A stretch of 64,000 nt of DNA from Microcella daejeonensis (GTDB taxonomy: Bacteria; Actinomycetota; Actinomycetes; Actinomycetales; Microbacteriaceae), in NCBI RefSeq assembly GCF_026625045.1, contig NZ_CP113089.1:1-64000 (forward strand). The letters run 5' to 3'. Both the position numbers and the translations under genes were made by a program. A model generated the notes under the pieces. The model worked only from the letters and a program-made list of their open reading frames with translations, was not told where the DNA came from and ran no database searches. Shown piece after piece: positions 3,977-31,622 of the stretch. Within the stretch, counting starts at the first letter, position 1. Every line of letters begins with the position of its first letter.

Positions 3977-5756
3977 GATTCAGCGGGTCCCGTTCGACAA
4001 GACGGCGGTTCGCAGTTGGACGAAGAGCGACCCGAGGCACCGGAGCTGGCCAGTCGTCTATTTGATCGACGCGGAAGCCCCGAAGAAGCCCTCCTCGGGA
4101 TTCAAGGACGTCTACGTCGGTGAGACGCTGAACGCCGGCGCGCGAGTGCTGCAACACCTCGACTCCCCCGGCAAACAGCATTTGACGCAGGTGCGGGTGG
4201 TGCTGGACGACACCTTCAACAAGTCCGTCTGCCTGGACCTCGAGTCTCACCTCATCCGTCTGCTCGCCGGTGACGGCACCTACCGGGTTCTCAACCGCAA
4301 TGAGGGCATCACGGACTCTGCCTACTACGACCGCGAGGTGTACCGCGAGTCGTTCCGCGAGGTCTTCGACACCCTGCGAGACGAGGGTGTCTTCACCAGA
4401 AGCGTTCCGGAGATCGAGAACAGCGACCTCTTCAAACTGTCGCCCTACAAGGCCCTGACGCAGGATCAGGCGATCGCGGTCGAGGACATCGTGGAGGGAC
4501 TGTTCGACGACCTCGCGAAGGGCGTCGGTGAGCTGCTCGTCGTGCAGGGCGAGCCGGGCACGGGAAAGACTGTGGTCGCCGTCTACCTGATGAAGCTGCT
4601 CGCCGATATCGCGGCATCGAAACCCGACGACGAACCGGATGCGGATTCCATTTTCGCCGACTTCTTCACGGACGATCATCGACGCGCACTGCAGGACTTC
4701 CGCGTGGGCCTGGTCGTCCCGCAGCAGTCGCTTCGGGAGAGCATCCGCCGCGTGTTCAAGCGCACGCCGGGCCTGCACCCATCGCAAGTGATGACGGCGT
4801 TCCAGGCGGGTGAGAGCGAGCAGCCGTGGGATCTGCTCATCGTCGACGAGGCTCACCGACTGAATCAGCGAGCCAACCAATCGTCGGGCGGCCAGAACAA
4901 GAAGTTCAAAGACATCACGACCACGCTCTTCGGCGCCGACGACATCACCAAGACGCAGCTCGACTGGATCCGCGCGCGTAGCCGCCACCAGATCCTCATG
5001 GTCGACCCTGAGCAGAGCGTTCGGCCGGCCGATCTGGCACCTGAGATGCTCCGCGAGCTGGTCAGCGCGGCGAAGGACGATCTCCGGCACTACCCGCTCG
5101 TCTCACAGATGCGCGTCCGCGCCGGCGAGGACTACATCGGCTGGATACGCAGCATCCTCCGTCCCGGTCCGCCCGACGTGGATGCTCCGCCGCCTGCACC
5201 TCGGACATTCCAGGACTACGACATGCAGTTCTTCGACGACATCGGCGAGATGCACGATGCGATTCGCGCTCGGGACGCGGAGCATGGCCTTGCTCGCCTC
5301 GTTGCCGGGTATGCCTGGCCGTGGGTGAGCAAGGGCTCGGCCGACGTGCATGACATCGAACTCGATGGCCGACTTCTCCGTTGGAACAGCACCGACACCG
5401 ATTGGATCGCATCGCCCGGTTCTCTGGAGGAAGTCGGTTCGATCCACACGGTCCAGGGATACGACCTGAATTACGCGGGCGTGGTGATCGGTCGAGACCT
5501 TGAGTGGGATCCCAAAGCAGATCGCCTGCTAGTGAATCGAAGGAACTACTTCGATAAAAAGGGCAAGGAGAACAACCCGACGCTCGGCCGCAAGTACAGC
5601 GATGAGGAACTGCTGCGCTACATCTGCAACGTCTACGCAGTCCTGCTGACACGAGGCATTCGCGGAACCTACGTCTACGTGTGCGATGAAGGCTTGCGCG
5701 AGCGACTTACGGGTCTCCTCCCGGGTAGCTCGGCTCAGGTCAGAGACGGCAACTAG
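3963..5756 (+). CDS. GIY-YIG nuclease fused to DUF2075 (Schlafen-type) ATPase/helicase
   Basis: 597 residues. The N-terminal domain (about 28-120) carries GIY-YIG features: VVYLI, YVGET, the arginine in GARVLQH, the glutamate in CLDLESHLI and the asparagine in VLNRNEG. The second part is a DUF2075 P-loop ATPase of the helicase/Schlafen class. It has Walker A GEPGTGKTVVA at about 197, Walker B LLIVDEAHRL at about 291, ILMVDPEQSVRP, an SQMR motif, the motif-V-like IHTVQGYDLNYAGVVIG at about 494, and YAVLLTRGIRGTYVYV near the C-terminus. All key residues look intact. It overlaps the MazG-like gene. The combination suggests an ATP-driven nucleic-acid-processing defence module; its target is unknown. 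Confidence 0.88.
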   Translation: MTGFEIQRVPFDKTAVRSWTKSDPRHRSWPVVYLIDAEAPKKPSSGFKDVYVGETLNAGARVLQHLDSPGKQHLTQVRVVLDDTFNKSVCLDLESHLIRLLAGDGTYRVLNRNEGITDSAYYDREVYRESFREVFDTLRDEGVFTRSVPEIENSDLFKLSPYKALTQDQAIAVEDIVEGLFDDLAKGVGELLVVQGEPGTGKTVVAVYLMKLLADIAASKPDDEPDADSIFADFFTDDHRRALQDFRVGLVVPQQSLRESIRRVFKRTPGLHPSQVMTAFQAGESEQPWDLLIVDEAHRLNQRANQSSGGQNKKFKDITTTLFGADDITKTQLDWIRARSRHQILMVDPEQSVRPADLAPEMLRELVSAAKDDLRHYPLVSQMRVRAGEDYIGWIRSILRPGPPDVDAPPPAPRTFQDYDMQFFDDIGEMHDAIRARDAEHGLARLVAGYAWPWVSKGSADVHDIELDGRLLRWNSTDTDWIASPGSLEEVGSIHTVQGYDLNYAGVVIGRDLEWDPKADRLLVNRRNYFDKKGKENNPTLGRKYSDEELLRYICNVYAVLLTRGIRGTYVYVCDEGLRERLTGLLPGSSAQVRDGN

Positions 5757-5763
5757 CCTGGAC

Positions 5764-5827
5764 CTGGTCCCCGGCTCACCCAGACGCGGCGCCGCCCCGC
5801 CCCGGGCCCCTTGCGGTGCATGGGTAG
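5764..5827. repeat. Left copy of an imperfect direct repeat flanking the 1257-residue gene
   Basis: A GC-rich stretch just after the DUF2075 stop codon matches 10148-10213 in the same orientation. Shared blocks are CTGGTCC/CTTGTCC, CCGGCTC, CCCAG and CCCCGGGCCCC, with a few small gaps. It lies outside genes. It may be a recombination scar or a duplicated island end. Confidence 0.5.
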
Positions 5828-5984
5828 CCTTGTCCGCCGGTACCAGGAGTCAGTCGATCGACCCGACTGGCCAGGGATGATTTTCTTCTCAACGTGATCT
5901 ACACATCAATTCTTGCAGTCGTTGTAGGGACACCGGTCACCTGACTGGACCACGTCGCTCCGACAATCCGCCACGCAATCATGT

Positions 5985-8900
5985 TCAGTCAGTTGCCTGA
6001 CCAACCAAGGCGAGGAACTGTGTTGCGGTAAACACCTCGTACGGCCGCGAGACCATATAACCCGCCGGCGTCAAGTGACGGGTTACAAATATTGAACGGA
6101 GAACGTGTCCGCCGCGATCCGGCGACGAAGTCACACCCAGTTTCTTCGCCAACTCTTCGATGTATGGCCTCACCTCTGACTCTTTGCGGGCAAGCTGAGT
6201 CGTGTAGCAAGGCTTGACTCGCCCTCTACTCTCCGAGTCCCGGTAAAAGGCTCGCAGCTGGCGCGCTGTCTCCGCAAAACCGTAGACCGCCGCGGGATCC
6301 TTTGCCTCGATCAGCCAGATGTTTGGATCTCCGTTGCGCCCACAAACGAGGTCGATCTCCGTAGTAATTTGCGGGACTCCAAGTCGCTCGTGGTCACCCG
6401 GCTTCACTCGCGCAATCGTGTTGAACCCGAGATCCTTGAGTTGCCGCTGAAGGGCGCGCTCAAATGCCAGATTCCTATGTTCGCGCCTCTCCGCCAGCGC
6501 TTTGGAAACCTGCTCCGGCACTTCCCCGGTCCACGGCAGAACGCCTTGTGTCAACTGGTTGTTGTAGACACTCAAGGTCGTCAAGAGATACTGCGGAGAA
6601 ATCAGGATTGTGCCGTCAGGAAAACGAATCAACGGTTTGACAAGTAGGCGATGCCTGCGGGTCCGTGTCTGCCAAGGCTCCCAGGGAGCGGAACGCAAGA
6701 TGTCCGGAGACACAACGAGCATTTGAAATGCGCTTTGAAGACGCAGTCGATGTCCTTCGTCGGGTTTACCAGCTGCGTCATAGACCCAACGCAGTGCCAC
6801 ATCCTGATTAGCAAACGCGATACTTTGGCCGTCTTCGAAGGACTCCCACTGGGCGAGAGCAATCAAAGTCAAAAAAACGTCGCGCGTCGCCGCTCCAAAG
6901 GACTCCAACATCGCTGGATCAACACCGTCCTCGATACCATCCGCGCTAGTCTCGGCATCATCGAACACGGGGCCGATTCGGATGCTCGCCGCCGCATCGT
7001 TGAGCGCTTCCCCTTCCAACAACCAAGAACCATCAGTCGTGCTCTCATCGTCTAGAAAGTTGAGCTCAAATGCTGAAGTGATTTCGATGGTGACCGGACT
7101 CACGCCGTGATGGAGGCGTTCGCTCAGTGTGGTCACGGTGCGGTACGCATCCGCAGCAGCCAATAGTGCGCTCCATCTTTGAGCGTTGGTAGGACGTTGT
7201 GTGTCAGTGGTGGCTTCCGACCTAAGTGCGGCCTCTACGATGATCTCGTTGCACTGGCGCAGCTGTAGCGATTCACCGGCAAGTTCGGTCATGCGCTCTA
7301 CGGGGTCCCAGTCCGTCGCGAGGTCGCGCGCAACTCGGGTCAAGTTGCCCTGTTCTTTTTGCAAGTGGTCGATCACTCGGTTTAGTTGCTCCATGCCTGT
7401 CGCCACCACCACCTGCGGGTCATGCAGCGCTATGCCGTCAACGAGTTCCTTCAGCGCGAGGGGCGCGAGATGGTCCTTGACGAGATTGTTTGCGTCGATG
7501 CCCCGATATCGGCCAGGTTCCACGCCGGATGCGTGCAGACGGCGTGCAAACGACGAAGTCGCCGCTGACTGGTCAGAGAGGTGCAGACGCCACGGACTTC
7601 GGAGATGATTCAATTTAGTTCGGGCAGCCTTCGTTTCGAGAATCAGAAACGGCCTACAATTCCGCCATTCGTTGCCAATCTGTACAGCAACTTCGGGAAG
7701 AACGCCACCGAACTGAAGAAGCTCTTCGAGCGCAGAGACGGTCAGTTCGTTCGCTGCGCGGGGGTTCCCGTCTGCGTCCTGCACGAATCTTTCTAGATCG
7801 AAAGTCCAGAGCGCTGAGCGCGCAACGCCGCTCGTTTGCATCAGAGCAGACGAAAACTGGACCACCCCATCAGGCTGCTCGACGTCTTCTTCAAATGCTC
7901 GGAGCCTAAGTTGATATCCGGGCACATCGAGGCTCCGATGAGCGCTTCTCCACGATTCACCAATTGCGTCAAAAGCAAAGATGAGTCCCCCGCAAACGTC
8001 GAACAGGAACCGATAATGCTGTGCTCTCGTCCAGTCAGGATCCGACCTGACTATTGCGATTGGAGGTGTTGTCAGAGCCAAGGACCAACCGACCCGATCG
8101 GGTGCATGATGGGTTCCACGCCGATGGTCGTACTCGCCTTCTGATGCGATAAAGGCCACCGAGGCAACTTTGGCTGAGGAGGCCTCGGCCATTTCTGCGT
8201 GCCGAAGCGCCGGCAAACCAACGCCGTGGAGGGCGATCTCCAGAGGCGATAGCTCCACTGCTCGATCCCACTCCGCGCCCCCTGCATGGGCCTCGAAATA
8301 CATGTGAGTAGGGCTTATGCCCCCTTTGAAGAATGTCTTCTCGTTCGCCCTCCAGGGCTCCCAATAGTTGATTGCCTCCCAGCCAAAGCTGGTTGGGAAT
8401 TCGGGCGAACTCAAATCGCGGGCGAATCGAAACAGGTCTTCGTCAGCTGTTGCCGTCTCGGCGATCCAGGTTAGGTCTTCCAATGCCAGAGTGGCTTGGC
8501 CAGGCATCTGGGGTGCCATCAAATGCGACGTGCCAGCGACGATCACAAGAGGAACGACAACCGCGTCGGGAAGCAATTTGACACTTCCGCCGCCAGCCAT
8601 CTGCGCCAAGACGGGCCCCTCGGACCAGTCATGATCGCGAACCCGCTCAGCCAGCGACACACACCCAATTGATCGGGGGCCACTCCGCGGCAGGTCCTCT
8701 GTGAATAGAATCGAAACCGCGATGAAGTTCGGCCCCTCACTCGGCACCAACCATTGGATCTCGCTTCCGGTAAGCGGAAGTATCTCGTCAGGCCTCTTGG
8801 GTGGCCCCTCTATGAGGGTGTTCGAAAACCGCCAGAGAGCCCGGCGAGTCGTTTCAATGCATGAGGCGCGGAGCGCCCGCCGCGAGTGGTTGTCGCGCTC

Positions 8901-9758
8901 CAGCCCAGTTACCAGTTCTGACACTGCATGAGCGAGAACCTCCGCAACGTACGTCGGCGGTAACCATCGATCGGATTGGTCCGCTCCCGGGACCCGGTAA
9001 CGAAGGGTTCGCCCAAAGGGACTAGTGCGGCTTTCGTGATTGTACGTCGCTGTGTCCGCGCGGGAGGTCATCCATTCGAGGGCAAGCAAGTCTGCTCGAT
9101 CGAGCTGGAGCGATTCGAGCGGATCGGTAGACACGAGCCGGCGTGCGGCATGAAGCTCGCCCGGTGGCAGATCGATGGGGTCGTCCAGGTTGATGCTTGG
9201 AGCAGGTTGCCAATGCGGAAGCAAGGTTTCGATGCAGTAGTCCACGTATCTCAGCAACACTCGGACCACATTGGCGATCCCAAACTTGTACCGCCGCACA
9301 AGTTGATCGTCCACCGCGGCGGCAAGTCGCAAAGCTCGAGACAAGTCAGCTATCGGTCTCTCAATCAAGCCCGGAACCATACGCAGCAACTCGTCGCCGA
9401 CTCGAACAGTCGCAAAATTAGTGGGGTCCGTCGGGATGTAGTCCTCATGCATCGGGCCGATGCCTTTGGATTCAGCTGCCTGGTCGACCAACTCTTGGAT
9501 GTCCGGGAGGGGCTCTTTGCTACCTATGATGGAAATCGAGCTAGCACGCAGACTTGCGGCCAGCGCCACGCCGATCGGTGTGGCGCGGTGACGCGCCGAT
9601 GGCGATGCGGCAGCCGCATACAACGTCGCCCACAGCGAGTCGTGGTCGAACCGGCCACAGACCCGCGCAAACTCGTCGACCTGAGACGCCCCATCATTTA
9701 CACGGACACGCTTCGGCTTTTTTGCCTTGACACGCCCCATGCCCACCCCCAGTGCCAC
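5985..9758 (-). CDS. Large protein of unknown family with a C-terminal PD-(D/E)XK nuclease motif
   Basis: 1257 residues from GTG 9758; TAGCTT lies 9 nt upstream. ATG 9740 gives 1251 residues and remains possible. The N-terminus is short and basic (KAKKPKRVRV). I recognise no domain in the first ~1080 residues, which are soluble-looking without membrane segments. The last ~170 residues carry a restriction-like core: a helix with glutamate (NLAFERALQRQLKDLGF), then EIDLVCG at about 1130 and WLIEAKD at about 1145. These fit the E...D...ExK metal site of PD-(D/E)XK nucleases. GC content is clearly lower than in the flanking chromosome. It stands alone, convergent to the DUF2075 operon and next to tRNA-Pro. 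A defence effector is inferred. Confidence 0.75.
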   Translation of the reverse strand: MALGVGMGRVKAKKPKRVRVNDGASQVDEFARVCGRFDHDSLWATLYAAAASPSARHRATPIGVALAASLRASSISIIGSKEPLPDIQELVDQAAESKGIGPMHEDYIPTDPTNFATVRVGDELLRMVPGLIERPIADLSRALRLAAAVDDQLVRRYKFGIANVVRVLLRYVDYCIETLLPHWQPAPSINLDDPIDLPPGELHAARRLVSTDPLESLQLDRADLLALEWMTSRADTATYNHESRTSPFGRTLRYRVPGADQSDRWLPPTYVAEVLAHAVSELVTGLERDNHSRRALRASCIETTRRALWRFSNTLIEGPPKRPDEILPLTGSEIQWLVPSEGPNFIAVSILFTEDLPRSGPRSIGCVSLAERVRDHDWSEGPVLAQMAGGGSVKLLPDAVVVPLVIVAGTSHLMAPQMPGQATLALEDLTWIAETATADEDLFRFARDLSSPEFPTSFGWEAINYWEPWRANEKTFFKGGISPTHMYFEAHAGGAEWDRAVELSPLEIALHGVGLPALRHAEMAEASSAKVASVAFIASEGEYDHRRGTHHAPDRVGWSLALTTPPIAIVRSDPDWTRAQHYRFLFDVCGGLIFAFDAIGESWRSAHRSLDVPGYQLRLRAFEEDVEQPDGVVQFSSALMQTSGVARSALWTFDLERFVQDADGNPRAANELTVSALEELLQFGGVLPEVAVQIGNEWRNCRPFLILETKAARTKLNHLRSPWRLHLSDQSAATSSFARRLHASGVEPGRYRGIDANNLVKDHLAPLALKELVDGIALHDPQVVVATGMEQLNRVIDHLQKEQGNLTRVARDLATDWDPVERMTELAGESLQLRQCNEIIVEAALRSEATTDTQRPTNAQRWSALLAAADAYRTVTTLSERLHHGVSPVTIEITSAFELNFLDDESTTDGSWLLEGEALNDAAASIRIGPVFDDAETSADGIEDGVDPAMLESFGAATRDVFLTLIALAQWESFEDGQSIAFANQDVALRWVYDAAGKPDEGHRLRLQSAFQMLVVSPDILRSAPWEPWQTRTRRHRLLVKPLIRFPDGTILISPQYLLTTLSVYNNQLTQGVLPWTGEVPEQVSKALAERREHRNLAFERALQRQLKDLGFNTIARVKPGDHERLGVPQITTEIDLVCGRNGDPNIWLIEAKDPAAVYGFAETARQLRAFYRDSESRGRVKPCYTTQLARKESEVRPYIEELAKKLGVTSSPDRGGHVLRSIFVTRHLTPAGYMVSRPYEVFTATQFLALVGQATD

Positions 9759-21063: not shown

Positions 21064-21907
21064 AGTCGGCTCCCAGGTTCACGAGGCTCTCGTCCGTCCA
21101 ATTCTCCGCCGTCCAGCGCACCGTGAGCTCCCCCAGAGGCTCGAGCTGCTCGAAGCCGACGGCGGCGTGCCGGTACAGCTCGAGCAGGGCGAGGAACCGC
21201 GCGACGACGACGCCCTTCTGCTCGGCGCCCGCGATGAGGGCGCGGAAGGTCACCGGCTCCCCCTGGCGCAGCAGGCTGACGACGTGCGCCGCCTGCTCGC
21301 GGATGGAGACGAGCGGGGCGTGCAGGTGGTCGAGACCCACGACGGGGATCTCGCGCGGCGTCATCGCGAGCAGGGCGAGAGCGGCGAAGTCGTCGAGGCT
21401 CGTCGTCCAGCGCAGCTCGGGAGTGCGTTCGCGGAACTTGTCCTCCAGGCGCACCGAGCGGGTGTGCCGGCGGGTCTCGGCGTCGATGCGGGAGGCGAAC
21501 CAGCCGCTCGCCTCCTTGAAGGCGCGGTACTGCAGCAGGCGGGCGAAGAGCAGGTCACGGGCCTCCAGCAGGGCCACGTCCTCCGCGTCGACGAGCTCGC
21601 CCTGCGGCAGCAGGCTGGCGATCTTCCAGTCCAGCAGCGTCACGGCGACGACGAGGAACTCGCTCGCCTGATCCAGCTCGTCGATCGCCGACCCGCCCTC
21701 GTGGTCGAGACCGCGCAGGTACGAGAGGAACTCGTCGGTGACGGCGCTCAGCGCGATCTCGGTGATGTCGAGCTCGCGCTTCGAGATGAGGCTCAGCAGC
21801 AGGTCGAAGGGGCCCTCGAACGAGCTCAGGCTGACGCGGAACCCCGGTGGGGCATCCGGTGCCGCCGCGTCGACGGGGAGGACCTCGGGCTCAGGCGACG
21901 GCGCCAC
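21053..21907 (-). CDS. scpA: Segregation and condensation protein A
   Basis: 284 residues. The kleisin N-terminal motif FEGPFDLLLSLISKRELDITEI is split here as FEGPFDLLLSLI and KRELDIT, at about 29-50. The DEFLSYL and EASEFLVVAVTLLDWK-like helices follow. It bridges the Smc heads together with ScpB. The start is GTG 21907, overlapping the parA 3' end by 17 bp, so translation is probably coupled. Confidence 0.95.
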   Translation of the reverse strand: MAPSPEPEVLPVDAAAPDAPPGFRVSLSSFEGPFDLLLSLISKRELDITEIALSAVTDEFLSYLRGLDHEGGSAIDELDQASEFLVVAVTLLDWKIASLLPQGELVDAEDVALLEARDLLFARLLQYRAFKEASGWFASRIDAETRRHTRSVRLEDKFRERTPELRWTTSLDDFAALALLAMTPREIPVVGLDHLHAPLVSIREQAAHVVSLLRQGEPVTFRALIAGAEQKGVVVARFLALLELYRHAAVGFEQLEPLGELTVRWTAENWTDESLVNLGADYGQ

Positions 21908-22778
21908 GCTCGATCAACTCTCGCGCGAGCTGCCGGTAGGCGCGGGCCGCGGGGTGCTCGGAGGCGTAGGAGGTGATCGGGGTGCCCGCGACGGAGGCGT
22001 CGGGGAACTTCACGGTGCGCCCGACGACCGTCTCGAGCACGCTGTCGCCGAAGGCCTCGACGACGCGCTCGAGCACCTCGCGCGAGTGCAGGGTGCGCGA
22101 GTCGTACATCGTCGCGAGGATGCCGTCGAGCTGGATGGCGGGGTTGAGGCGGTCCTTGACCTTCTCGATCGTCTCCACCAGCAGGGCGACGCCGCGCAGG
22201 GCGAAGTACTCGCACTCCAGCGGGATGAGCACGCCGTGCGCGGCCGTGAGGGCGTTGACGGTGAGCAGGCCGAGCGAGGGCTGGCAGTCGACGAGGATGA
22301 CGTCGTAGTCGTCGAGCACCGGGCGCAGCACGCGGGCGAGGATCTGCTCGCGCGCGACCTCGTTGACGAGGTGCACCTCGGCGGCGCTGAGGTCGATGTT
22401 CGCCGGGATGATGTCGAGCCCGGGCGTCGTGGTCTGCTGCACGGCGAGACGGGTGTCCTTCTCGCGGCCGAGCAGCAGGTCGTAGATGGTGAGGCCGTCG
22501 TGGCTGTTGACGCCGAGGCCGGCGGAGAGCGCGCCCTGCGGGTCGAAGTCGATGACGAGAACCTTGCGCCCGTACTCGGCGAGCGCCGCGCCCAGACTGA
22601 TCGTGGTGGTCGTCTTGCCGACGCCGCCCTTCTGGTTGCAGAGCGCGATGATGCGGGCCGGGCCGTGCTCGGTGAGTGCGGCGGGGACGGCGAACTCGCG
22701 CTTCGGCCGGCCGGTCGGGCCGGTCGCGATCGCATCCATCCCGGGGAGGGCCGTACCGCTCGTCTTCTCGCCGCTCAT
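21891..22778 (-). CDS. parA: ParA/Soj-family chromosome partitioning ATPase
   Basis: 295 residues from ATG 22778. The deviant Walker A motif is NQKGGVGKTTTTISLG at about 48-63 and Walker B is ILVDCQPS. This second ParA copy in the scpA-scpB context is conserved in actinobacteria, distinct from the origin-proximal parAB. TAGACT lies 8 nt before the ATG. The frame extends upstream to GTG 22808, but that start lacks a promoter or ribosome binding site. Confidence 0.93.
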   Translation of the reverse strand: MSGEKTSGTALPGMDAIATGPTGRPKREFAVPAALTEHGPARIIALCNQKGGVGKTTTTISLGAALAEYGRKVLVIDFDPQGALSAGLGVNSHDGLTIYDLLLGREKDTRLAVQQTTTPGLDIIPANIDLSAAEVHLVNEVAREQILARVLRPVLDDYDVILVDCQPSLGLLTVNALTAAHGVLIPLECEYFALRGVALLVETIEKVKDRLNPAIQLDGILATMYDSRTLHSREVLERVVEAFGDSVLETVVGRTVKFPDASVAGTPITSYASEHPAARAYRQLARELIERGAVA

Positions 22779-22786
22779 AGGCCCCG

Positions 22787-22792
22787 AGTCTA
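22787..22792 (-). promoter_or_regulatory. -10 box (TAGACT) of the parA-to-der operon
   Basis: TAGACT lies 8 nt before ATG 22778. It is the same hexamer as at 14445 and 58192, with no Shine-Dalgarno sequence. Confidence 0.5.
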
Positions 22793-22962
22793 CTGACCGC
22801 TCGGTCACGGGCCGGTGCGACGGGCCGGGCGGGCGCAGTGCCGCTCCGCGCTTCCTGCGAGGCCTCTCGGGGCCATCCGGAGTCTTTCGGGGCCCTCCGC
22901 GGCCTCACGTCCGTGCTCCGATGCGGGATGCCCGCCCATTGCTCGCGCGCAGGTGACGGGAG

Positions 22963-22968
22963 TTGACT
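22963..22968 (+). promoter_or_regulatory. TTGACT element before paralogue A
   Basis: TTGACT lies 7 nt before ATG 22976. The same element at the same distance precedes three of the other four paralogues. It occupies the place of a -10 box on a leaderless mRNA. Confidence 0.55.
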
Positions 22969-22975
22969 GGAGCCT

Positions 22976-23671
22976 ATGGACGACGCCGCCCGCCGCGCTC
23001 TCGAACGCACCGCGTTCGGGCCGACGCGCACGGACGAGGAGCGGCGCGCGGCCGAGGAGGCGGCGCTCGAGCTCGCCCGGCTCGACGCGGTGGAGCGCCG
23101 GGGGCATCCGGTGCGGCGCACGCGCGTCGGCGCCGGGGTCATGCATCCCGTCCCGCCGCGCCCGCCGCGCCCGCTGTGGCGCCACCCGGCCCTCATCACG
23201 GGGGTCGTCGTCGCCCTGCTCGGCGGGCTCACCGCGGGCGGCCTCGCGATCGCCTCCTCCGTGCTGCAGGGTCGCCCGAACATCTTCCTCGGCGCGCAGG
23301 GCTTCACCGCGCAGGAGGTGCGGGCCCTCGACATCCCGGCCTTCGACGTCTTCGATCGGCCTGCCACCGCGACCGAGCTGCAGTACCTGGAGGAGCTCGA
23401 GGTGGGTGGGCGCATCGTGCAGCTGGGGCCGCGCATCCTCGACGCCGATGACGACTGGGACTACGCCGCCGTCATCGTCCGCTCGCTCGTCACCACCATC
23501 GAGCCGCGCGCCTGCGTGTGGGCGCTCGGCGAGTCGGACGCCTCGCTCGCCTGCACCGACATCACCCGCTTCGCCGAGACCGGTGTCGAGGGCGAGGCGA
23601 GCTCCCGCGAGGGCACCGTCGCCTTCCGCTGGACGGCCGACGGCGACTTCGAGGCGGTCCGTGCGCGGTAG
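22976..23671 (+). CDS. Membrane-anchored Cys-pair protein, paralogue A of five
   Basis: 231 residues. A cytosolic N-terminus (LERTAFGP-TRTDEERRAAEEAALELARL) contains a short conserved helix-like motif also seen in paralogues C, D and E. One membrane helix spans about 73-97, and the rest is probably outside the membrane. The outer part contains TAQEVRALDIPAFDVFDRPA, which resembles TLDEVRALGIPAIEMLESLP in paralogue B, and the cysteine pair CVWALGESDASLAC. The C-terminus has the shared W-T-x-D-G segment. No known family is recognised. It is divergent from parA. Confidence 0.75.
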   Translation: MDDAARRALERTAFGPTRTDEERRAAEEAALELARLDAVERRGHPVRRTRVGAGVMHPVPPRPPRPLWRHPALITGVVVALLGGLTAGGLAIASSVLQGRPNIFLGAQGFTAQEVRALDIPAFDVFDRPATATELQYLEELEVGGRIVQLGPRILDADDDWDYAAVIVRSLVTTIEPRACVWALGESDASLACTDITRFAETGVEGEASSREGTVAFRWTADGDFEAVRAR

Positions 23672-23683
23672 GCCATCCCGTGA

Positions 23684-23689
23684 TTGACT
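23684..23689 (+). promoter_or_regulatory. TTGACT element before paralogue B
   Basis: TTGACT lies 7 nt before ATG 23697 and is preceded by TGA, giving a TGN-TTGACT extended form. Confidence 0.55.
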
Positions 23690-23696
23690 TCGCCTC

Positions 23697-24734
23697 ATGA
23701 CACCGGATGCCGCTGCCGGGGCCGCGCGCCCCCAGCGCCCTCTCGTGCTCGACGCCGACGGCGGCACGGCGCTCCCCCTCGACGCCGAGCCCCTCGGCGA
23801 GCGCCGCCCGCCCCGGATCCCGCTGCGCCTCCTCGTCGCCGCCCTCGTCGCGGTGCTCCTCCTCACCGGCTCGGCGTTCGGCACGCGCGCCGCCGCCGAC
23901 GTCGACCCCAGCGCCTTCGCGATCTTCGACGAGCCGGCGAGCGCCGACGACGAGCAGGCCATGGAGGACTTGGTCGGGATCGGGGCGCCGATGATCGGCG
24001 AGCCCCGGGTTCTGTCGAGCACCGGCAGCGTCACGGTGGTCGCCGTGCGAGCACCCGAGGGCACCGGGGCCCGCCTCGCCGCGAACGGCGGGTACCCGCC
24101 CTCGGGCGGACCGGTGATCCCCGATCCACTGCAGCGCGGCGACGACGTCACGGCGGGAGACGTGCCGGAGTCCGCCGAGGTCTGCCTGTGGGTGCTGAGC
24201 CTGCAGGCCGGGCCCAACGGTCGCTGCGCATCGGAGGAGGCCTTCGTCGAACGCGGCCTCGCCGTCTCGGCGATCACGGAGACGCTGGAGTCCATCGCCC
24301 TCTGGACTCCGCAGGGAGCGGCGGTCGTCGAGGCCCTGCCGCACGGCCCCATCACCCTCGACGAGGTGCGCGCTCTCGGCATTCCGGCGATCGAGATGCT
24401 GGAGTCCCTCCCTCCGGACGAGAGCGCCGTCATTACCCGGAGCAGCGAGGGCCGCGACTCGTTCGGGGAGCAGATCCTCGCCATGCGCGAGATCGAGAGG
24501 TCCGAGGGCTGGCGCATGTCGGCGGGCATCTTCCGCCCCGAACCCGAGGGCGGGCTCGCCGCATGCGTGCGGCTCGCGCCCGAGGAGCGCTACGGCGAGT
24601 ACGTATTCAGCTGCACGTCGATCGCGGAGTTCGTCGATCTCGGGGCCGGCGGAGGGATCGGGGTCTTCGGCGAGAACGTCACATGGATCTGGGCGCCCGA
24701 TGGCACGGCCTCGATCAGCCTGGACGGCTCGTGA
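23697..24734 (+). CDS. Membrane-anchored Cys-pair protein, paralogue B, with a duplicated outer domain
   Basis: 345 residues. One membrane helix at about 41-62 is followed by two copies of the outer domain. The first ends with CLWVLSLQAGPNGRCAS, FVERGL and WTPQG. The second begins TLDEVRALGIPAIEML and ends CVRLAPEERYGEYVFSC, F-V-D-L-G and WAPDG. It lacks the N-terminal helix motif of the other members. Its stop codon overlaps the GTG of paralogue C (GTGA), so B and C form an operon. Function unknown. Confidence 0.75.
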   Translation: MTPDAAAGAARPQRPLVLDADGGTALPLDAEPLGERRPPRIPLRLLVAALVAVLLLTGSAFGTRAAADVDPSAFAIFDEPASADDEQAMEDLVGIGAPMIGEPRVLSSTGSVTVVAVRAPEGTGARLAANGGYPPSGGPVIPDPLQRGDDVTAGDVPESAEVCLWVLSLQAGPNGRCASEEAFVERGLAVSAITETLESIALWTPQGAAVVEALPHGPITLDEVRALGIPAIEMLESLPPDESAVITRSSEGRDSFGEQILAMREIERSEGWRMSAGIFRPEPEGGLAACVRLAPEERYGEYVFSCTSIAEFVDLGAGGGIGVFGENVTWIWAPDGTASISLDGS

Positions 24735-25603
24735 CCTCGCAGCAGTCCGGCGGTGACGCGGGCGACGCGCGGGCTGCCCGCATCGCGGAGCTCGAGCGGC
24801 TGCTCTTCGGCCGCCCGGATTCGGGGACGACCCGTATCGACGGTTCCGTGGTCGATGCCGATCGGGCGTCCGCTCTGGACGAGCTCGAGCGTCTCCGCAG
24901 CTACCGTGCGGCACCCGCGGAGACGACGGTGCCCGACCACGACGACACCATCGTGCGTCCGGTGACTCCTGAATCGCCGAACGACCCCGGGCACGGCGCC
25001 GCCCTGAGCCGGTCGTCTCACGCTGCCGAGCCGTCGACGTCCGAGCACGCCCGGGGTGCGCTCCGACTGCTGGCCGCGATCGGCGCACTCGCGCTCCTCG
25101 CGGGCGCACTCATCGGCATCCTCACCGCGCCGCCGGCTCCCGCGGCGCTCGATTCCCTCCGCTCCCCCGCCACCCCGGTCGACCGCGTGCGCAGCGCGAT
25201 CCTGCGCGACGCCGGGCTCCCGCTCCTCGCCGACGGACGCATCATCGCCAGCACGAGCGGCGCCGCGTCCCTGCTCGTCTTCCGCGCGCCGCAGGGCACC
25301 GCAGAACTCCTCCGCGACGCCGACGCGAGCCTCGTCGGCAACGAGCTCTCCCCCTTCGGCGGCGCCCTCTACCTGCTCCCCGCCCCGACCGCGCTCGACC
25401 GAGCGGACACGCGCCGATCCGAGGTCTGCGCCTGGGTCGTCGAGCGCAGCTTCGCCATCGAAGGACGGTGCACGACCCTCGACGAGTTCGCGCAGGAGGG
25501 CCTCGACTTCGAGACCGAGCGCTTCGGCATCCGCTACGCCGTCGCATGGTCGCCCGCGGGCGAGGCCGAACTGCGCGCCCTGCCCGTCGAAGAGACACCC
25601 TGA
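24731..25603 (+). CDS. Membrane-anchored Cys-pair protein, paralogue C
   Basis: 290 residues. GTG 24731 overlaps the stop codon of B. The N-terminal motif RAARIAELERLLFGRPDSGT is shared with D and E. A long charged, probably disordered cytosolic stretch follows, with one membrane helix at about 110-133. The outer domain has LLVFRAPQGTAELL, the pair CAWVVERSFAIEGRC, FAQEGL and WSPAG. It has no TTGACT element of its own, consistent with transcription from B. Confidence 0.75.
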   Translation: MTSQQSGGDAGDARAARIAELERLLFGRPDSGTTRIDGSVVDADRASALDELERLRSYRAAPAETTVPDHDDTIVRPVTPESPNDPGHGAALSRSSHAAEPSTSEHARGALRLLAAIGALALLAGALIGILTAPPAPAALDSLRSPATPVDRVRSAILRDAGLPLLADGRIIASTSGAASLLVFRAPQGTAELLRDADASLVGNELSPFGGALYLLPAPTALDRADTRRSEVCAWVVERSFAIEGRCTTLDEFAQEGLDFETERFGIRYAVAWSPAGEAELRALPVEETP

Positions 25604-25621
25604 CCCCGCGTCACCCCGTGC

Positions 25622-25627
25622 TTGACT
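25622..25627 (+). promoter_or_regulatory. TTGACT element before paralogue D
   Basis: TTGACT lies 7 nt before ATG 25635, in the context CCGTGCTTGACT (extended TGC). Confidence 0.55.
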
Positions 25628-25634
25628 GGCCCCC

Positions 25635-26432
25635 ATGACCCGGGATGCCGCTGCCGAGTCCGCCCGCATCGCCGAGCTCCAGCGGCTCGCCTACGGCCGG
25701 GCCTCGACGCCCGCCGAGGCCGCGCGCGCCGAGGCCGCCGCGCTGGAGCTGCAGCAGCTGCTCGCCGCCCGCGCCGCGGCCGAGCATCCCACCCCCACCG
25801 ACGACCGCGCCGCGGCCCCGCCTGCCGACGCCCACCGGGCTGACGCGGCAGACGTGACGGACGTCACCGACGCGCCCGACGACGACGCCGGCCCGCGCCC
25901 CTGGTGGCAGCGGCTGCCCGCCCTCGTCGGGGCCCTCGCGGCCGCGATCGTCGGCGGCGGCGCCCTGCTCGGCGTGCTGACCCCCTCCGGCCCGCCGGCG
26001 GCGCTCGTCGTCTTCGACCGCGCTCCCGACGCGGCCGAGCTCGCGCTCACGGGTCGCTTCCAGCAGCTCGGGGCGCCCGTCGACGGGCTGCGAATCATCG
26101 GCGACGCCGGTGCCGCCGAGCTCGTCGCTTTCCGCGCCCCGACCGGAACGGCGCAGCAGCTCGCCGACGCCGCCGGAGCGGGCGAGCCCTCCCTGCCGCT
26201 CGTGGACGAGAGCCGCTTCGGGGAGAACGGCGAACCGGTGCGCGAGTCCGCCGAGCAGGACGTCTGCCTCATGGTCGTCGACCGCGGCCTGCCCTCGGGG
26301 ACGAGCTGCGCGTCCGTCGGCGACTTCGTCGAGCGCGGGCTCGAGGTCGAGGGCCGGGACGCCCTCTCGGGGGCCCCGTACCGCGGTTCCTGGCTGGCCG
26401 ACGGCTCCGTGACGTTCGAGCCGCTCCCCTGA
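25635..26432 (+). CDS. Membrane-anchored Cys-pair protein, paralogue D
   Basis: 265 residues. The N-terminal motif SARIAELQRLAYGRASTPAE is close to C (ARIAELERLLFGR) and E (TRLAYARPSTPDDE). One membrane helix lies at about 94-117. The outer domain has LVVFDRAPDAAE, LVAFRAPTGTAQQL, the pair CLMVVDRGLPSGTSC, FVERGLEV and WLADG. No family is recognised. Confidence 0.75.
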   Translation: MTRDAAAESARIAELQRLAYGRASTPAEAARAEAAALELQQLLAARAAAEHPTPTDDRAAAPPADAHRADAADVTDVTDAPDDDAGPRPWWQRLPALVGALAAAIVGGGALLGVLTPSGPPAALVVFDRAPDAAELALTGRFQQLGAPVDGLRIIGDAGAAELVAFRAPTGTAQQLADAAGAGEPSLPLVDESRFGENGEPVRESAEQDVCLMVVDRGLPSGTSCASVGDFVERGLEVEGRDALSGAPYRGSWLADGSVTFEPLP

Positions 26433-26459
26433 GCCCTCGCGGTTCACACCGCCGGGTGC

Positions 26460-26465
26460 TTGACT
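26460..26465 (+). promoter_or_regulatory. TTGACT element before paralogue E
   Basis: TTGACT lies 6 nt before ATG 26472, in the context GGGTGCTTGACT. Confidence 0.55.
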
Positions 26466-26471
26466 ACCGCC

Positions 26472-27386
26472 ATGGCGCAGCCGCCGGGCGACGAGGAGCC
26501 CGCCGAGCGCGCCCTCGAGCACGTGATCGCGCACCTCTTCGACAGCGAGCTGACGCGCTTGGCGTACGCCCGACCGAGCACGCCGGACGATGAGCGGCGC
26601 GCCGAGGCCGCCCTGCGGGAGCTCGCCCGACGCGCGGCCGCGGCACCCGCGCCCGATCCGGCGCCGGTGGTCGCCGAGCGGCCCGCCCCGGTGCGGTTCC
26701 GGCGGCTCCGGCGACTCGGGCGGCTCCGGCGACGCCCGCAGCCGACGCCGGGCATCCCGACCCGCCCCGCCGCCCCACCGGAGGCCCGTACCCGCCGCGA
26801 GGACGCGCGCCGCGACTCCCGCCGCAGAGCCCACCGTGACGCTCCCCGCAGAGCACGCCGCGACGCCCACCGCGACGCTCCCCGCCCCGGCCGGCGCCGC
26901 GCCGGCGCGCTCGCGGCCGTCGGCACCCTGCTACTGAGCACCGTCGCCGCCCTCAGCGCCGCCGCGACCCCCGCGCCCGAGGCGGCGCCGCCCTCGGCTC
27001 TGCAGCAGCTCTACCGCGAGGCGACCCCCGTCGAGCGCGAGCTGCGCGACCGCATGCTCGCCGCCGGCCTGCCCGTCACCATCGGCCCGCGCCACCTCGC
27101 CGAGCAGTCGGGCGGCGAGCGCCTGCTCGCCTACCGGTCGGTGCGCGCGGGCACCGCCGAGACCGCGCGCAACGACGTCTGCGTGCTGCTCGTCGACGCC
27201 GAGACCCTGCGCACGCCCGTCTGCATCACGCGGGAGGCGTTCCTCGACGAGGGTCTGCGCACGACGCTCGAGGGCTCGGAGGGGCGCTGGAGCGTGCGCT
27301 GGGGACCGACGGACGAGGCCGAGGTGCAGGTGCGGCGCTCGGGCTCGAGCGCGAGCATCCCGCCCTACGCCCCCGCGCTGCGCTGA
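26472..27386 (+). CDS. Membrane-anchored Cys-pair protein, paralogue E, Arg-rich cytosolic part
   Basis: 304 residues. The N-terminal motif LTRLAYARPSTPDDERRAEA is followed by a strongly arginine-rich region at about 70-140 that repeats R-R-D-A/S-x-R-D. One hydrophobic helix lies at about 145-165. The outer domain has LLAYRSVRAGTAETA, the pair CVLLVDAETLRTPVC, FLDEGL and WGPTD. It is the last gene of the array and converges on xerD. Function unknown; the Arg-rich part could bind acidic polymers. Confidence 0.72.
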   Translation: MAQPPGDEEPAERALEHVIAHLFDSELTRLAYARPSTPDDERRAEAALRELARRAAAAPAPDPAPVVAERPAPVRFRRLRRLGRLRRRPQPTPGIPTRPAAPPEARTRREDARRDSRRRAHRDAPRRARRDAHRDAPRPGRRRAGALAAVGTLLLSTVAALSAAATPAPEAAPPSALQQLYREATPVERELRDRMLAAGLPVTIGPRHLAEQSGGERLLAYRSVRAGTAETARNDVCVLLVDAETLRTPVCITREAFLDEGLRTTLEGSEGRWSVRWGPTDEAEVQVRRSGSSASIPPYAPALR

Positions 27387-27399
27387 GCCGCCCCGGCTC

Positions 27400-28371
27400 C
27401 TAGAGCGCGCGCGGATGCGCCGTCGCCCAGGCCTCGCGCATCGCGTCGGCGGTGACGAGCGTGTAGATCTGCGTGGTCGCGACGCTCGCGTGGCCGAGCA
27501 GCTCCTGGACGACGCGCACATCGGCCCCGCCCTCGAGCAGGTGGGTGGCGAAGCTGTGCCGCAGCGTGTGCGGCGAGAGCTCGACGTCGAGCTGCGCGCG
27601 CTCGGCCGCGGCGCGGATGACGAGCCACGCCGACTGCCGGCTGAGCCGGGCCCCCCGCGCTCCGAGGAACAGCGCCGGCGTCGAGGCGCCCCGCGGCGAG
27701 AGCAGCGGCCGCGCGCGCACGAGGTACGCCTCGAGCGCCTCGCGGGCGTAGCGGCCGATCGGCACGATGCGCTGCTTGCGTCCCTTGCCGAATAGGCGCA
27801 CGGCACCGCCGACCTGGTCGTCGCCGCCCATCACGTCGTCGACGTTGAGGTCGATCGCCTCACTCGCGCGGGCGCCCGTCGCGTAGAGCAGCTCGAGCAG
27901 GGCGCGATCGCGCAGCATCATCGGCTCGTCGCCCGTGCAGGCCTCGAGCAGGCGCTCGACCTGCGCGATGCTGATCGCCTTCGGCAGGCGCTTCGGCTGC
28001 GACGGCGGCTTCTGGTCGGCGGCGACGTCCTGCTGCAGGATGCCCTCCTCGAGCAGGAACCGGTGCCAGCCGCGCACGCTCGACAGCATCCGCGCGGTCG
28101 TCGCGGCCCCCACGGGCGCGGCCGCGGTCGACGAGCCGGATCCCGCCGGGTCGCGCAGCGCCTGCACGAACCCCGCGACGTCCGCCGCTTCGATCTGCGC
28201 GACCTCCTCGCGCCCGAGGTCGGTGAGGAATCCGGCGTAGCGGGCGAGATCGCGGCGGTAGGCCGCGACGGTGTGCGGGGAGCGCCCGCGCTCGAGAGCG
28301 ATGTGGCGCAGGTAGCGGTCGATGGCGCGGACGAGGGCGGGAGCGGGCTCCGGCTGCTCGACCGCCGGCAC
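27400..28371 (-). CDS. xerD: Tyrosine recombinase XerD
   Basis: 323 residues from GTG 28371, next to the NUDIX stop codon. The N-terminal core-binding SAM-like domain is [19 protein letters not shown]. The catalytic domain has R in [24 protein letters not shown] (HxxR), [11 protein letters not shown] and the tyrosine nucleophile in IYTLV. It resolves chromosome dimers at dif together with XerC. The frame runs further upstream but only antiparallels the NUDIX gene, so the longer version is rejected. Confidence 0.93.
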
Positions 28372-28373
28372 GG

Positions 28374-31622
<3,249 letters not shown>

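What the first reader, a model, noticed from the sequence alone, without database searches (positions are those of the whole stretch)
22976..27386. Array of five paralogous membrane-anchored proteins with a conserved cysteine pair
All five have one membrane helix, an outer domain with C-x12-13-C (15 in one half of B), a following F-x-x-x-G-L and a C-terminal W-x-x-D/A-G segment. Four share a cytosolic N-terminal motif (RIAELxRLxYGR type), and B has two outer domains. They lie between parA and xerD and do not match any family I know. Expansion in place suggests selection, for example for surface sensing, adhesion or competition.
Basis: seen in the sequence. Interest (0 to 1): 0.75.

Follow-up and report, generated by a model that had tools for sequence, protein, structure and literature searches.

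The report
Genus-specific array of membrane receptor-like proteins
An actinobacterium of the genus Microcella carries a row of five sister genes for unnamed proteins predicted to hold a cysteine-stapled domain outside the cell, kept at one chromosomal spot by most of its relatives in the genus but with changing copy number and fast-changing sequence, which looks like a surface recognition or protection set whose partner is still unknown.

Summary
Confirmed and extended. The five genes (22976-27386) are real paralogs: a profile built without the window or its sister species finds all five (E 5e-27 to 1.4e-11; best of 10,000 shuffles 0.12). Each has one predicted membrane helix and one or two cysteine-pair outer domains; four have a cytosolic hairpin motif, B does not. 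The array lies between parA and xerD in 21 of 25 further Microcella genomes; one has an empty site, three are undetermined. None of 18 outgroup loci holds a member there. Two outer domains is the commoner state (48 of 72 genes) and probably ancestral in the genus. 119 of 120 domains hold exactly two cysteines. Distant relatives occur in 33 of 84 other sampled Microbacteriaceae genera. No Pfam, NCBIfam, PHROG or PADLOC family fits; the outer domain model is confident (pLDDT 91) but resembles no solved structure. TTGACT precedes the start by exactly 12-13 nt in 38 of 65 ORFs, an element shared genus-wide with an ABC ATPase and a DHA2 exporter. Omega is 0.40-0.62 against 0.06-0.29 for neighbours, never above 1. 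Best guess: surface receptors; main rival: surface protection.

The parts
22976..23671 (+). Gene A, 231 aa: hairpin (approx. 22976-23095), membrane helix (approx. 23195-23251, hydropathy), one outer domain 23312-23668 of the second type, cysteines 180 and 193
   Evidence: tree
23697..24734 (+). Gene B, 345 aa: no hairpin, membrane helix (approx. 23823-23879, hydropathy), two outer domains 23892-24356 and 24363-24734, cysteines 163/177 and 290/306
24731..25603 (+). Gene C, 290 aa, GTG start overlapping the stop of B by 4 nt; divergent hairpin with an insertion, membrane helix (approx. 25067-25123, hydropathy), outer domain 25127-25591, cysteines 233/247
25635..26432 (+). Gene D, 265 aa: hairpin, linker, membrane helix (approx. 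25923-25979, hydropathy), outer domain 25980-26432, cysteines 211/225
26472..27386 (+). Gene E, 304 aa: hairpin, long basic linker, membrane helix (approx. 26907-26963, hydropathy), outer domain 26979-27347, cysteines 237/251; outer domain modelled at pLDDT 91
22963..22968 (+). TTGACT, 13 nt before the ATG of A (here without the TGn seen before most others)
23684..23689 (+). TTGACT, 13 nt before the ATG of B
25622..25627 (+). TTGACT, 13 nt before the ATG of D
26460..26465 (+). TTGACT, 12 nt before the ATG of E
21891..22808 (-). parA, conserved flank (divergent from the array)
27400..28374 (-). xerD, conserved flank (convergent with the array)

Best explanation
A Microbacteriaceae family of bitopic (N-in, C-out) membrane proteins, amplified at one site in Microcella. 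Supported by computation: a cytosolic two-helix hairpin in most members, a linker, one membrane helix, one or two outer alpha/beta domains each with one cysteine pair. Inferred: the topology; that the cysteines form a disulfide outside the cell; that the divergent outer domains bind different outside ligands or partners; that the hairpin docks on one common cytosolic partner, so that the array works as a set of receptors or adaptors with different inputs and a shared output. Transcription probably starts at or next to the start codon (leaderless) from a TGnTTGACT element that in this genus also stands before an ABC ATPase and a DHA2 exporter, which would make the set part of an envelope-protection programme. 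The last step is the weakest.
For: Homology. 72 genes with 120 outer domains in this genome and 21 relatives; same build in distant family members. 119 of 120 domains have exactly two cysteines. Hairpin of D predicted at block pLDDT 86-98; outer domain of E at pLDDT 91.0, pTM 0.79. Over 9 ortholog pairs the hairpin is 78% identical (283/364), the outer part 69% (1209/1743), the linker 61% (241/398). 53 of 72 genes carry a hairpin at E up to 1e-3. In this genome the hairpin profile finds only family members below E 0.1. TTGACT exactly 12 or 13 nt before the start in 38 of 65 ORFs examined, 31 seen against 0.2 expected at candidate starts; TGnTTGACT-N6-7-RTG genus-wide 128 sites against 15 for the reversed pattern (summed by hand), recurring before one ABC ATPase in 21 and one DHA2 transporter in 17 of 26 genomes.
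Against: No ligand, partner or phenotype is known. In 14 loci of distant members no neighbour is shared by more than 3, apart from ABC-transporter ORFs of different kinds in 5. 19 of 72 genes, B among them, have no detectable hairpin (some are cut by contig ends or frame breaks), so a shared output cannot hold for all. In orthologs of A and C the hairpin is less conserved than the outer part (31/41 against 113/139; 15/36 against 105/158). The model's membrane segment of D has low confidence (blocks 51-58). 9 further cysteines lie in the 60 residues before the first domain of 8 genes. One Microcella genome has no array. The sixth member in this genome and 27 of 65 ORFs lack TTGACT. The element also stands before genes without an obvious envelope role (DUF222, a trehalase-like enzyme) and is mildly enriched in 44 other genera (104 against 44, summed by hand), so it may be only a general promoter type.
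Confidence: 0.4

Rival explanations
1. Surface protection: the outer domains are decoys or membrane-anchored immunity proteins that bind and neutralise extracellular toxins, bacteriocins or phage parts; variety among copies follows the variety of attackers.
For: Divergent copies at one site with copy number from 0 to 5 (6 in G006, whose array is split over two contigs), fast sequence change, probable loss of single domains, promoter element shared with exporter-like genes: all fit an arms race.
Against: No PADLOC or PHROG match for the 5 window proteins; no fold match; a cytosolic hairpin is not needed for a decoy; omega stays below 1. No toxin gene was identified beside the array, but the other ORFs in the gap were not searched against families.
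Confidence: 0.27
2. Envelope housekeeping: the outer domains bind cell-wall polymer or another envelope component, and the hairpins tether it to the cytoplasm or to the divisome; copies are partly redundant.
For: Distant members in 33 of 84 other sampled Microbacteriaceae genera; the conserved positions look structural; VIT1, a PspC-domain kinase and transporters share the promoter element.
Against: Absent from the site in G001 and no match in 219 of 299 family genomes at this sensitivity, with at most 14 candidates scored per genome; evolves much faster than the genes beside it.
Confidence: 0.15
3. A functional partner of the neighbouring parA-scpA-scpB / xerD chromosome-segregation genes.
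For: Fixed position between them in Microcella.
Against: 18 of 18 outgroup loci keep these flanks without a member; the 14 distant members whose surroundings I read are not at this site; this genome has a sixth member 1.5 Mb away.
Confidence: 0.05
4. Largely dispensable, drifting family kept by duplication at a permissive intergenic site, without a specific role.
For: Empty site in G001, apparently broken copy in G015, hairpin and domains of the G004 copy in different frames, omega 0.40-0.62, other ORFs in the gap of G011 and G017.
Against: Orthologs kept across the genus, cysteine pair in 119 of 120 domains, omega below 1, promoter hexamer kept exactly in 38 ORFs.
Confidence: 0.08

Closest known systems
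Unnamed Microbacteriaceae relatives outside the genus (loci L071-L095)
   Same: Same build: hairpin of AYGR type in many, one membrane helix, outer domain with the C...C, GL and W-x-x-D/x-G marks
   Different: One to four matches per genome; mostly scattered, though same-strand pairs within 2 kb occur in at least five genomes (G335, G323, G137, G340, G272; coordinates); not between parA and xerD where read; several with an additional N-terminal segment; no described function found
Bitopic anti-sigma factors (recalled, e.g. RskA or RsgI type)
   Same: Short cytosolic helical part, membrane helix, outer domain
   Different: No Pfam match for 14 hairpins (only one hit at E 0.15, to an unrelated family); no sigma factor beside the Microcella array; sigma-like ORFs (by eye) lie 1.7 and 2.4 kb from the member in 2 of 14 distant loci
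DUF1707 / SHOCT-type helical hairpins of actinobacterial membrane proteins (recalled)
   Same: Two short helices around a G-R turn, before a membrane helix
   Different: No Pfam match to either at E up to 1
Membrane-anchored immunity proteins with a disulfide-bonded outer alpha/beta domain, such as colicin M immunity protein (recalled)
   Same: Topology, size and one disulfide (as recalled)
   Different: Not among the 50 listed fold matches or the sequence matches; no cognate toxin identified
Leaderless genes with a TANNNT element (PMC3160421, PMC3898074: search listing and start of abstract only)
   Same: Hexamer ends 6-7 nt before the start codon
   Different: Here the hexamer is TTGACT, mostly with TGn before it, not TANNNT

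Membership tests
One protein family (the five and their Microcella relatives) | Outer domain detectable by a profile built from other species | tested here: met
   5 of 5, E 5e-27 to 1.4e-11, best of 10,000 shuffles 0.12
One protein family (the five and their Microcella relatives) | N-terminal cytosolic hairpin | tested here: inconclusive
   Independent profile: A, D, E yes; C no; B absent; 53 of 72 genes genus-wide
One protein family (the five and their Microcella relatives) | Exactly one cysteine pair per outer domain | tested here: met
   119 of 120 domains; the exception is in G015
Any named family in Pfam / NCBIfam / PHROGs / PADLOC | Match above curated or significant score | tested here: not met
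   5 proteins each; 94 domains, best E 0.045, 4 families with one member each; 94 domains, one member at E 0.0029
Anti-sigma factor | Anti-sigma domain by profile | tested here: not met
   14 hairpins, no such match
Anti-sigma factor | Partner sigma factor gene next to it | tested here: not met
   Microcella flanks are parA and xerD; in 14 distant loci none adjacent, sigma-like ORFs by eye at 1.7 and 2.4 kb in two
DUF1707 / SHOCT hairpin | Pfam profile match | tested here: not met
   E up to 1
Anti-phage defence protein | PADLOC model match | tested here: not met
   0 of 5
Anti-phage defence protein | Protects cells from phage | not testable with these tools
   needs a bench test
Known fold | Significant Foldseek match to a solved structure | tested here: not met
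   best E 0.054, TM 0.25 for the outer domain of E; best 0.09 for full-length D; viral models best 0.019; VIA-align and AlphaFold DB were not available
Leaderless gene | Core promoter hexamer 6-7 nt before the start codon | tested here: inconclusive
   a conserved hexamer stands there in 38 of 65 ORFs, but it is TTGACT, not TANNNT
Leaderless gene | Transcript begins at the start codon | not testable with these tools
   needs 5'-end mapping

The most novel reading that the evidence does not exclude
A genus-wide, fast-evolving surface recognition set: disulfide-stapled outer modules of a fold with no solved counterpart found here, amplified and pruned domain by domain at one chromosomal site, coupled through a shared cytosolic hairpin to one partner and expressed from a start-codon-proximal promoter (TGnTTGACT) together with drug-type exporters, that is, a previously undescribed innate surface defence or allorecognition system of Microbacteriaceae.
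Probability: 0.15. Interest if true: 0.8.

Novelty: new variant of a known kind. Interest (0 to 1): 0.5.

Why it matters
It defines an unnamed membrane protein family with a confidently predicted outer fold for which no solved relative was found, shows how a two-domain receptor-like protein was probably amplified and pruned at one site within a genus, and ties it to a conserved start-proximal promoter element shared with exporter genes. Each point gives a direct experiment in environmental bacteria: solve the fold, find the hairpin's partner, delete the array.

Tried and rejected
Single-protein scan of genome contigs with D: 195 pattern stretches, no relative; followed by a scan with ScpA, which brought named Microcella loci and outgroups. 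The first profile A1 hit, outside the genus, 0 of 11 same-family and 2 of 23 same-order genomes, at E 6.7e-4 and 2.7e-3; the domain profile A2 then found members in other genera of the family. A PDB sequence match (4p99, E 4.7e-4, antifreeze-protein repeats) covers 32 profile positions, no stretch passes alone, and is taken as chance. Reading TTGACT as a -35 box was rejected because a -10 would fall inside the gene. Reading it as a Shine-Dalgarno replacement was dropped because it does not match the 3' end of 16S RNA as recalled. Reading it as an ordinary member of the TANNNT class is not favoured: TGnTANNNT at the same place gives 19 matches against 13 for the control in this genome, TGnTTGACT 9 against 0; yet TA...T was also enriched at candidate starts in the loci at hand (15 against 1.1). 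A role tied to ParA was rejected (see rivals). Neighbour inference from 14 distant loci gave nothing useful. Literature: searches showed no description of the family or array in their listings (3, 0, 10 and 10 rows shown; one search had 186 papers); only listings and starts of abstracts were seen, no paper was opened.
Full report
Observation. The window is bases 1-64000 of the single 2.72 Mb contig of its genome. Same-genus contigs have the lengths of named records, Microcella putealis CV2 (530249 bases, G014 and L100) and Yonghaparkia sp. Root332 (1015765 bases, G002 and L121), so the genus is taken as Microcella in the GTDB sense (inference). Pairwise similarity is near chance, but a profile of 82 domains without the window or its sister species finds all five far above 10,000 shuffles; the relatives behind that profile were first found with the window's own profile, so the test is not wholly independent.

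Anatomy. AlphaFold2 on the outer domain of E with 31 aligned domains gives pLDDT 91.0 and pTM 0.79: two helices, three longer strands (the third with cysteine 72), a short strand with cysteine 86, a short helix and three more strands. The two cysteines lie on neighbouring strands in order, which fits a disulfide; distances were not available. Full-length D (16 aligned sequences, pLDDT 80.5) gives a hairpin (helices 2-20 and 26-50, blocks 86-98), a linker (blocks 67, 50, 44, 47), a membrane segment of low confidence (helix 95-107, blocks 51-58; hydropathy 2.27) and the outer domain. Foldseek finds no significant match in the PDB (best E 0.054; 0.09 for D) or among viral models (0.019).

Distribution. 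Profile A1 hit 23 of 60 genomes: the own genome, 20 of 25 same-genus genomes, 0 of 11 same-family and 2 of 23 same-order ones. With the domain profile, 21 of 25 same-genus genomes have members at the site. In 18 of the 21, parA and xerD are both on the fetched stretch; G006 is split over two contigs, G024 and G012 are on short contigs without the flanks. G001 has parA and xerD 47 bp apart and no member. G003 and G025 are cut at parA (G025 shows the promoter motif beyond it), and parA of G020 was not found. The own genome and the 21 hold 72 genes and 120 domains: 48 two-domain and 24 one-domain genes. At least three of the 24 are not whole genes: two G015 calls look like one broken two-domain gene and one in G006 lies at a contig end. 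The G004 copy has its hairpin and its domains in different frames. Of 18 outgroup loci with both flanks, none has a member; in 15 the gap between the aligned ends is 35-230 bp, in three it is 0.8, 5.1 and 5.7 kb of sequence that I did not examine. In G011 and G017 other ORFs share the gap, so the site accepts insertions. In the family at large, 80 of 299 genomes and 34 of 85 genera match at E up to 1e-3, Microcella included; without the six Microcella genomes of that sample it is 75 of 293 genomes and 33 of 84 genera. Twenty-odd of these distant proteins that I read have the same build; they are mostly scattered, but same-strand pairs within 2 kb occur in at least five genomes.

Evolution. In a tree of 120 domains (128 columns; 28 of 117 inner branches open) 46 of 48 first domains lie on one side and 48 of 48 second domains on the other. 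The dividing branch has support 81/84, so this is likely, not proven. It suggests that in this genus domain duplication came before most gene duplication and that single-domain genes lost one half. A groups with the second domain of B, E with first domains of an orthologous group; B's first domain, C and D fall on the second side with weak support. Omega (Nei-Gojobori type) between G000 and G010 is 0.40, 0.62, 0.55, 0.57, 0.52 for A-E and 0.11, 0.06, 0.29, 0.13, 0.12 for parA, scpA, scpB, xerD, pyrG; synonymous distance is raised too (0.31-0.72 against 0.13-0.21). Between G013 and G005 five members have 0.16-0.58, three flanks 0.03-0.19; between G009 and G007 one member has 0.09, two flanks 0.02-0.03. 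By region over nine ortholog pairs identity is hairpin 78%, membrane helix 71%, outer 69%, linker 61%, but in A and C the hairpin is less conserved than the outer part.

Promoter element. TTGACT stands exactly 12 or 13 nt before an in-frame start in 38 of 65 family ORFs (17 and 21 cases). The motif was noticed in these same loci, so this count is not a blind test. Of the 27 without it some are reading-frame artefacts or fragments and, by eye, many others begin at or inside the end of the preceding gene; but L044_34 (G014) has 72 bp of free space upstream and lacks it, and so does the parA-proximal gene of G018 (L042_28). The sixth member of this genome lacks it too. Among 570 candidate starts in 364 kb of genus loci, duplicates not removed, it is the most enriched hexamer (31 against 0.2). 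TGnTTGACT-N6-7-RTG occurs 128 times in 26 genus genomes against 15 for the reversed pattern (sums by hand); 33 are at the array. I read the 95 others: 82 start an ORF of 60 aa or more, 13 do not, and the 82 fall into orthologous genes: an ABC ATPase in 21 genomes, a DHA2 MFS transporter in 17, VIT1 in 8, a protein without Pfam match in 7, DUF222 in 7, a PspC-domain kinase in 4, a glutamate symporter, a PLDc_N protein and a GH15 enzyme in 3 each, and others in 1-2; one is an unlinked family member in G017. Names come from one representative each: the ABC ATPase is nearest drrA and the MFS nearest EmrB, both below the curated cut-offs. In 44 other genera the pattern gives 104 against 44. The position fits a -10 element of leaderless transcripts, with TGn as an extended -10; this is inference.

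Mechanism. The most likely reading is a receptor or adaptor set with variable outside and a shared inside; the main rival is surface protection against toxins or phages. Conserved positions in the outer domain (two cysteines, one glycine, W-x-P-x-G, G-P-R) look structural, with no catalytic-looking pattern, which favours binding over an enzyme. Confidence in mechanism is low; confidence in family, architecture and location is high.

Comparison. No family in Pfam, NCBIfam, PHROGs or PADLOC fits. Anti-sigma, DUF1707/SHOCT and immunity-protein likenesses are recalled leads and failed the profile or fold tests available. The paper searches showed no description of the array in their listings, which is weak evidence since most subscription journals are missing.

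Noticed in passing
L061-L065, L168-L197, L200-L263; window 22963, 23684, 25622, 26460: TGnTTGACT 6-7 nt before the start codon recurs before the same genes across Microcella: ABC ATPase in 21, DHA2 exporter in 17, VIT1 in 8 of 26 genomes. It may mark a small regulon or a distinct leaderless promoter class.
   Followed up: partly
G000 contig 1, 1524617-1525717 (-), locus L003; L220 (G017): A sixth, two-domain family member far from the array, without TTGACT; G017 also has an unlinked member, that one with the element.
   Followed up: partly
L047 5047-5950 (G015); L054 about 5460-6575 (G004): Members that appear split between reading frames; pseudogenes or assembly errors.
   Followed up: no
L142 5447-6220, L143 5277-6407, L146 5247-6317, L147 5839-6723: Several distant relatives carry an additional N-terminal segment with a DALWW-type motif, also unnamed.
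   Followed up: no
L147 (G335) 5839-8906; also G323, G137, G340, G272 by coordinates: Small tandem pairs or triplets of distant family members outside Microcella, so amplification is not confined to the genus.
   Followed up: no
L039 9561-10580 and L052 7021-8220: ORFs that read like a sugar-epimerase or SDR protein (by eye) sit in the same parA-xerD gap of G017 and G011, so the gap tolerates insertions.
   Followed up: no
L112, L120: Planctomonas and Microbacterium barkeri have 5-6 kb between xerD and parA, with no family hit; the content was not examined.
   Followed up: no
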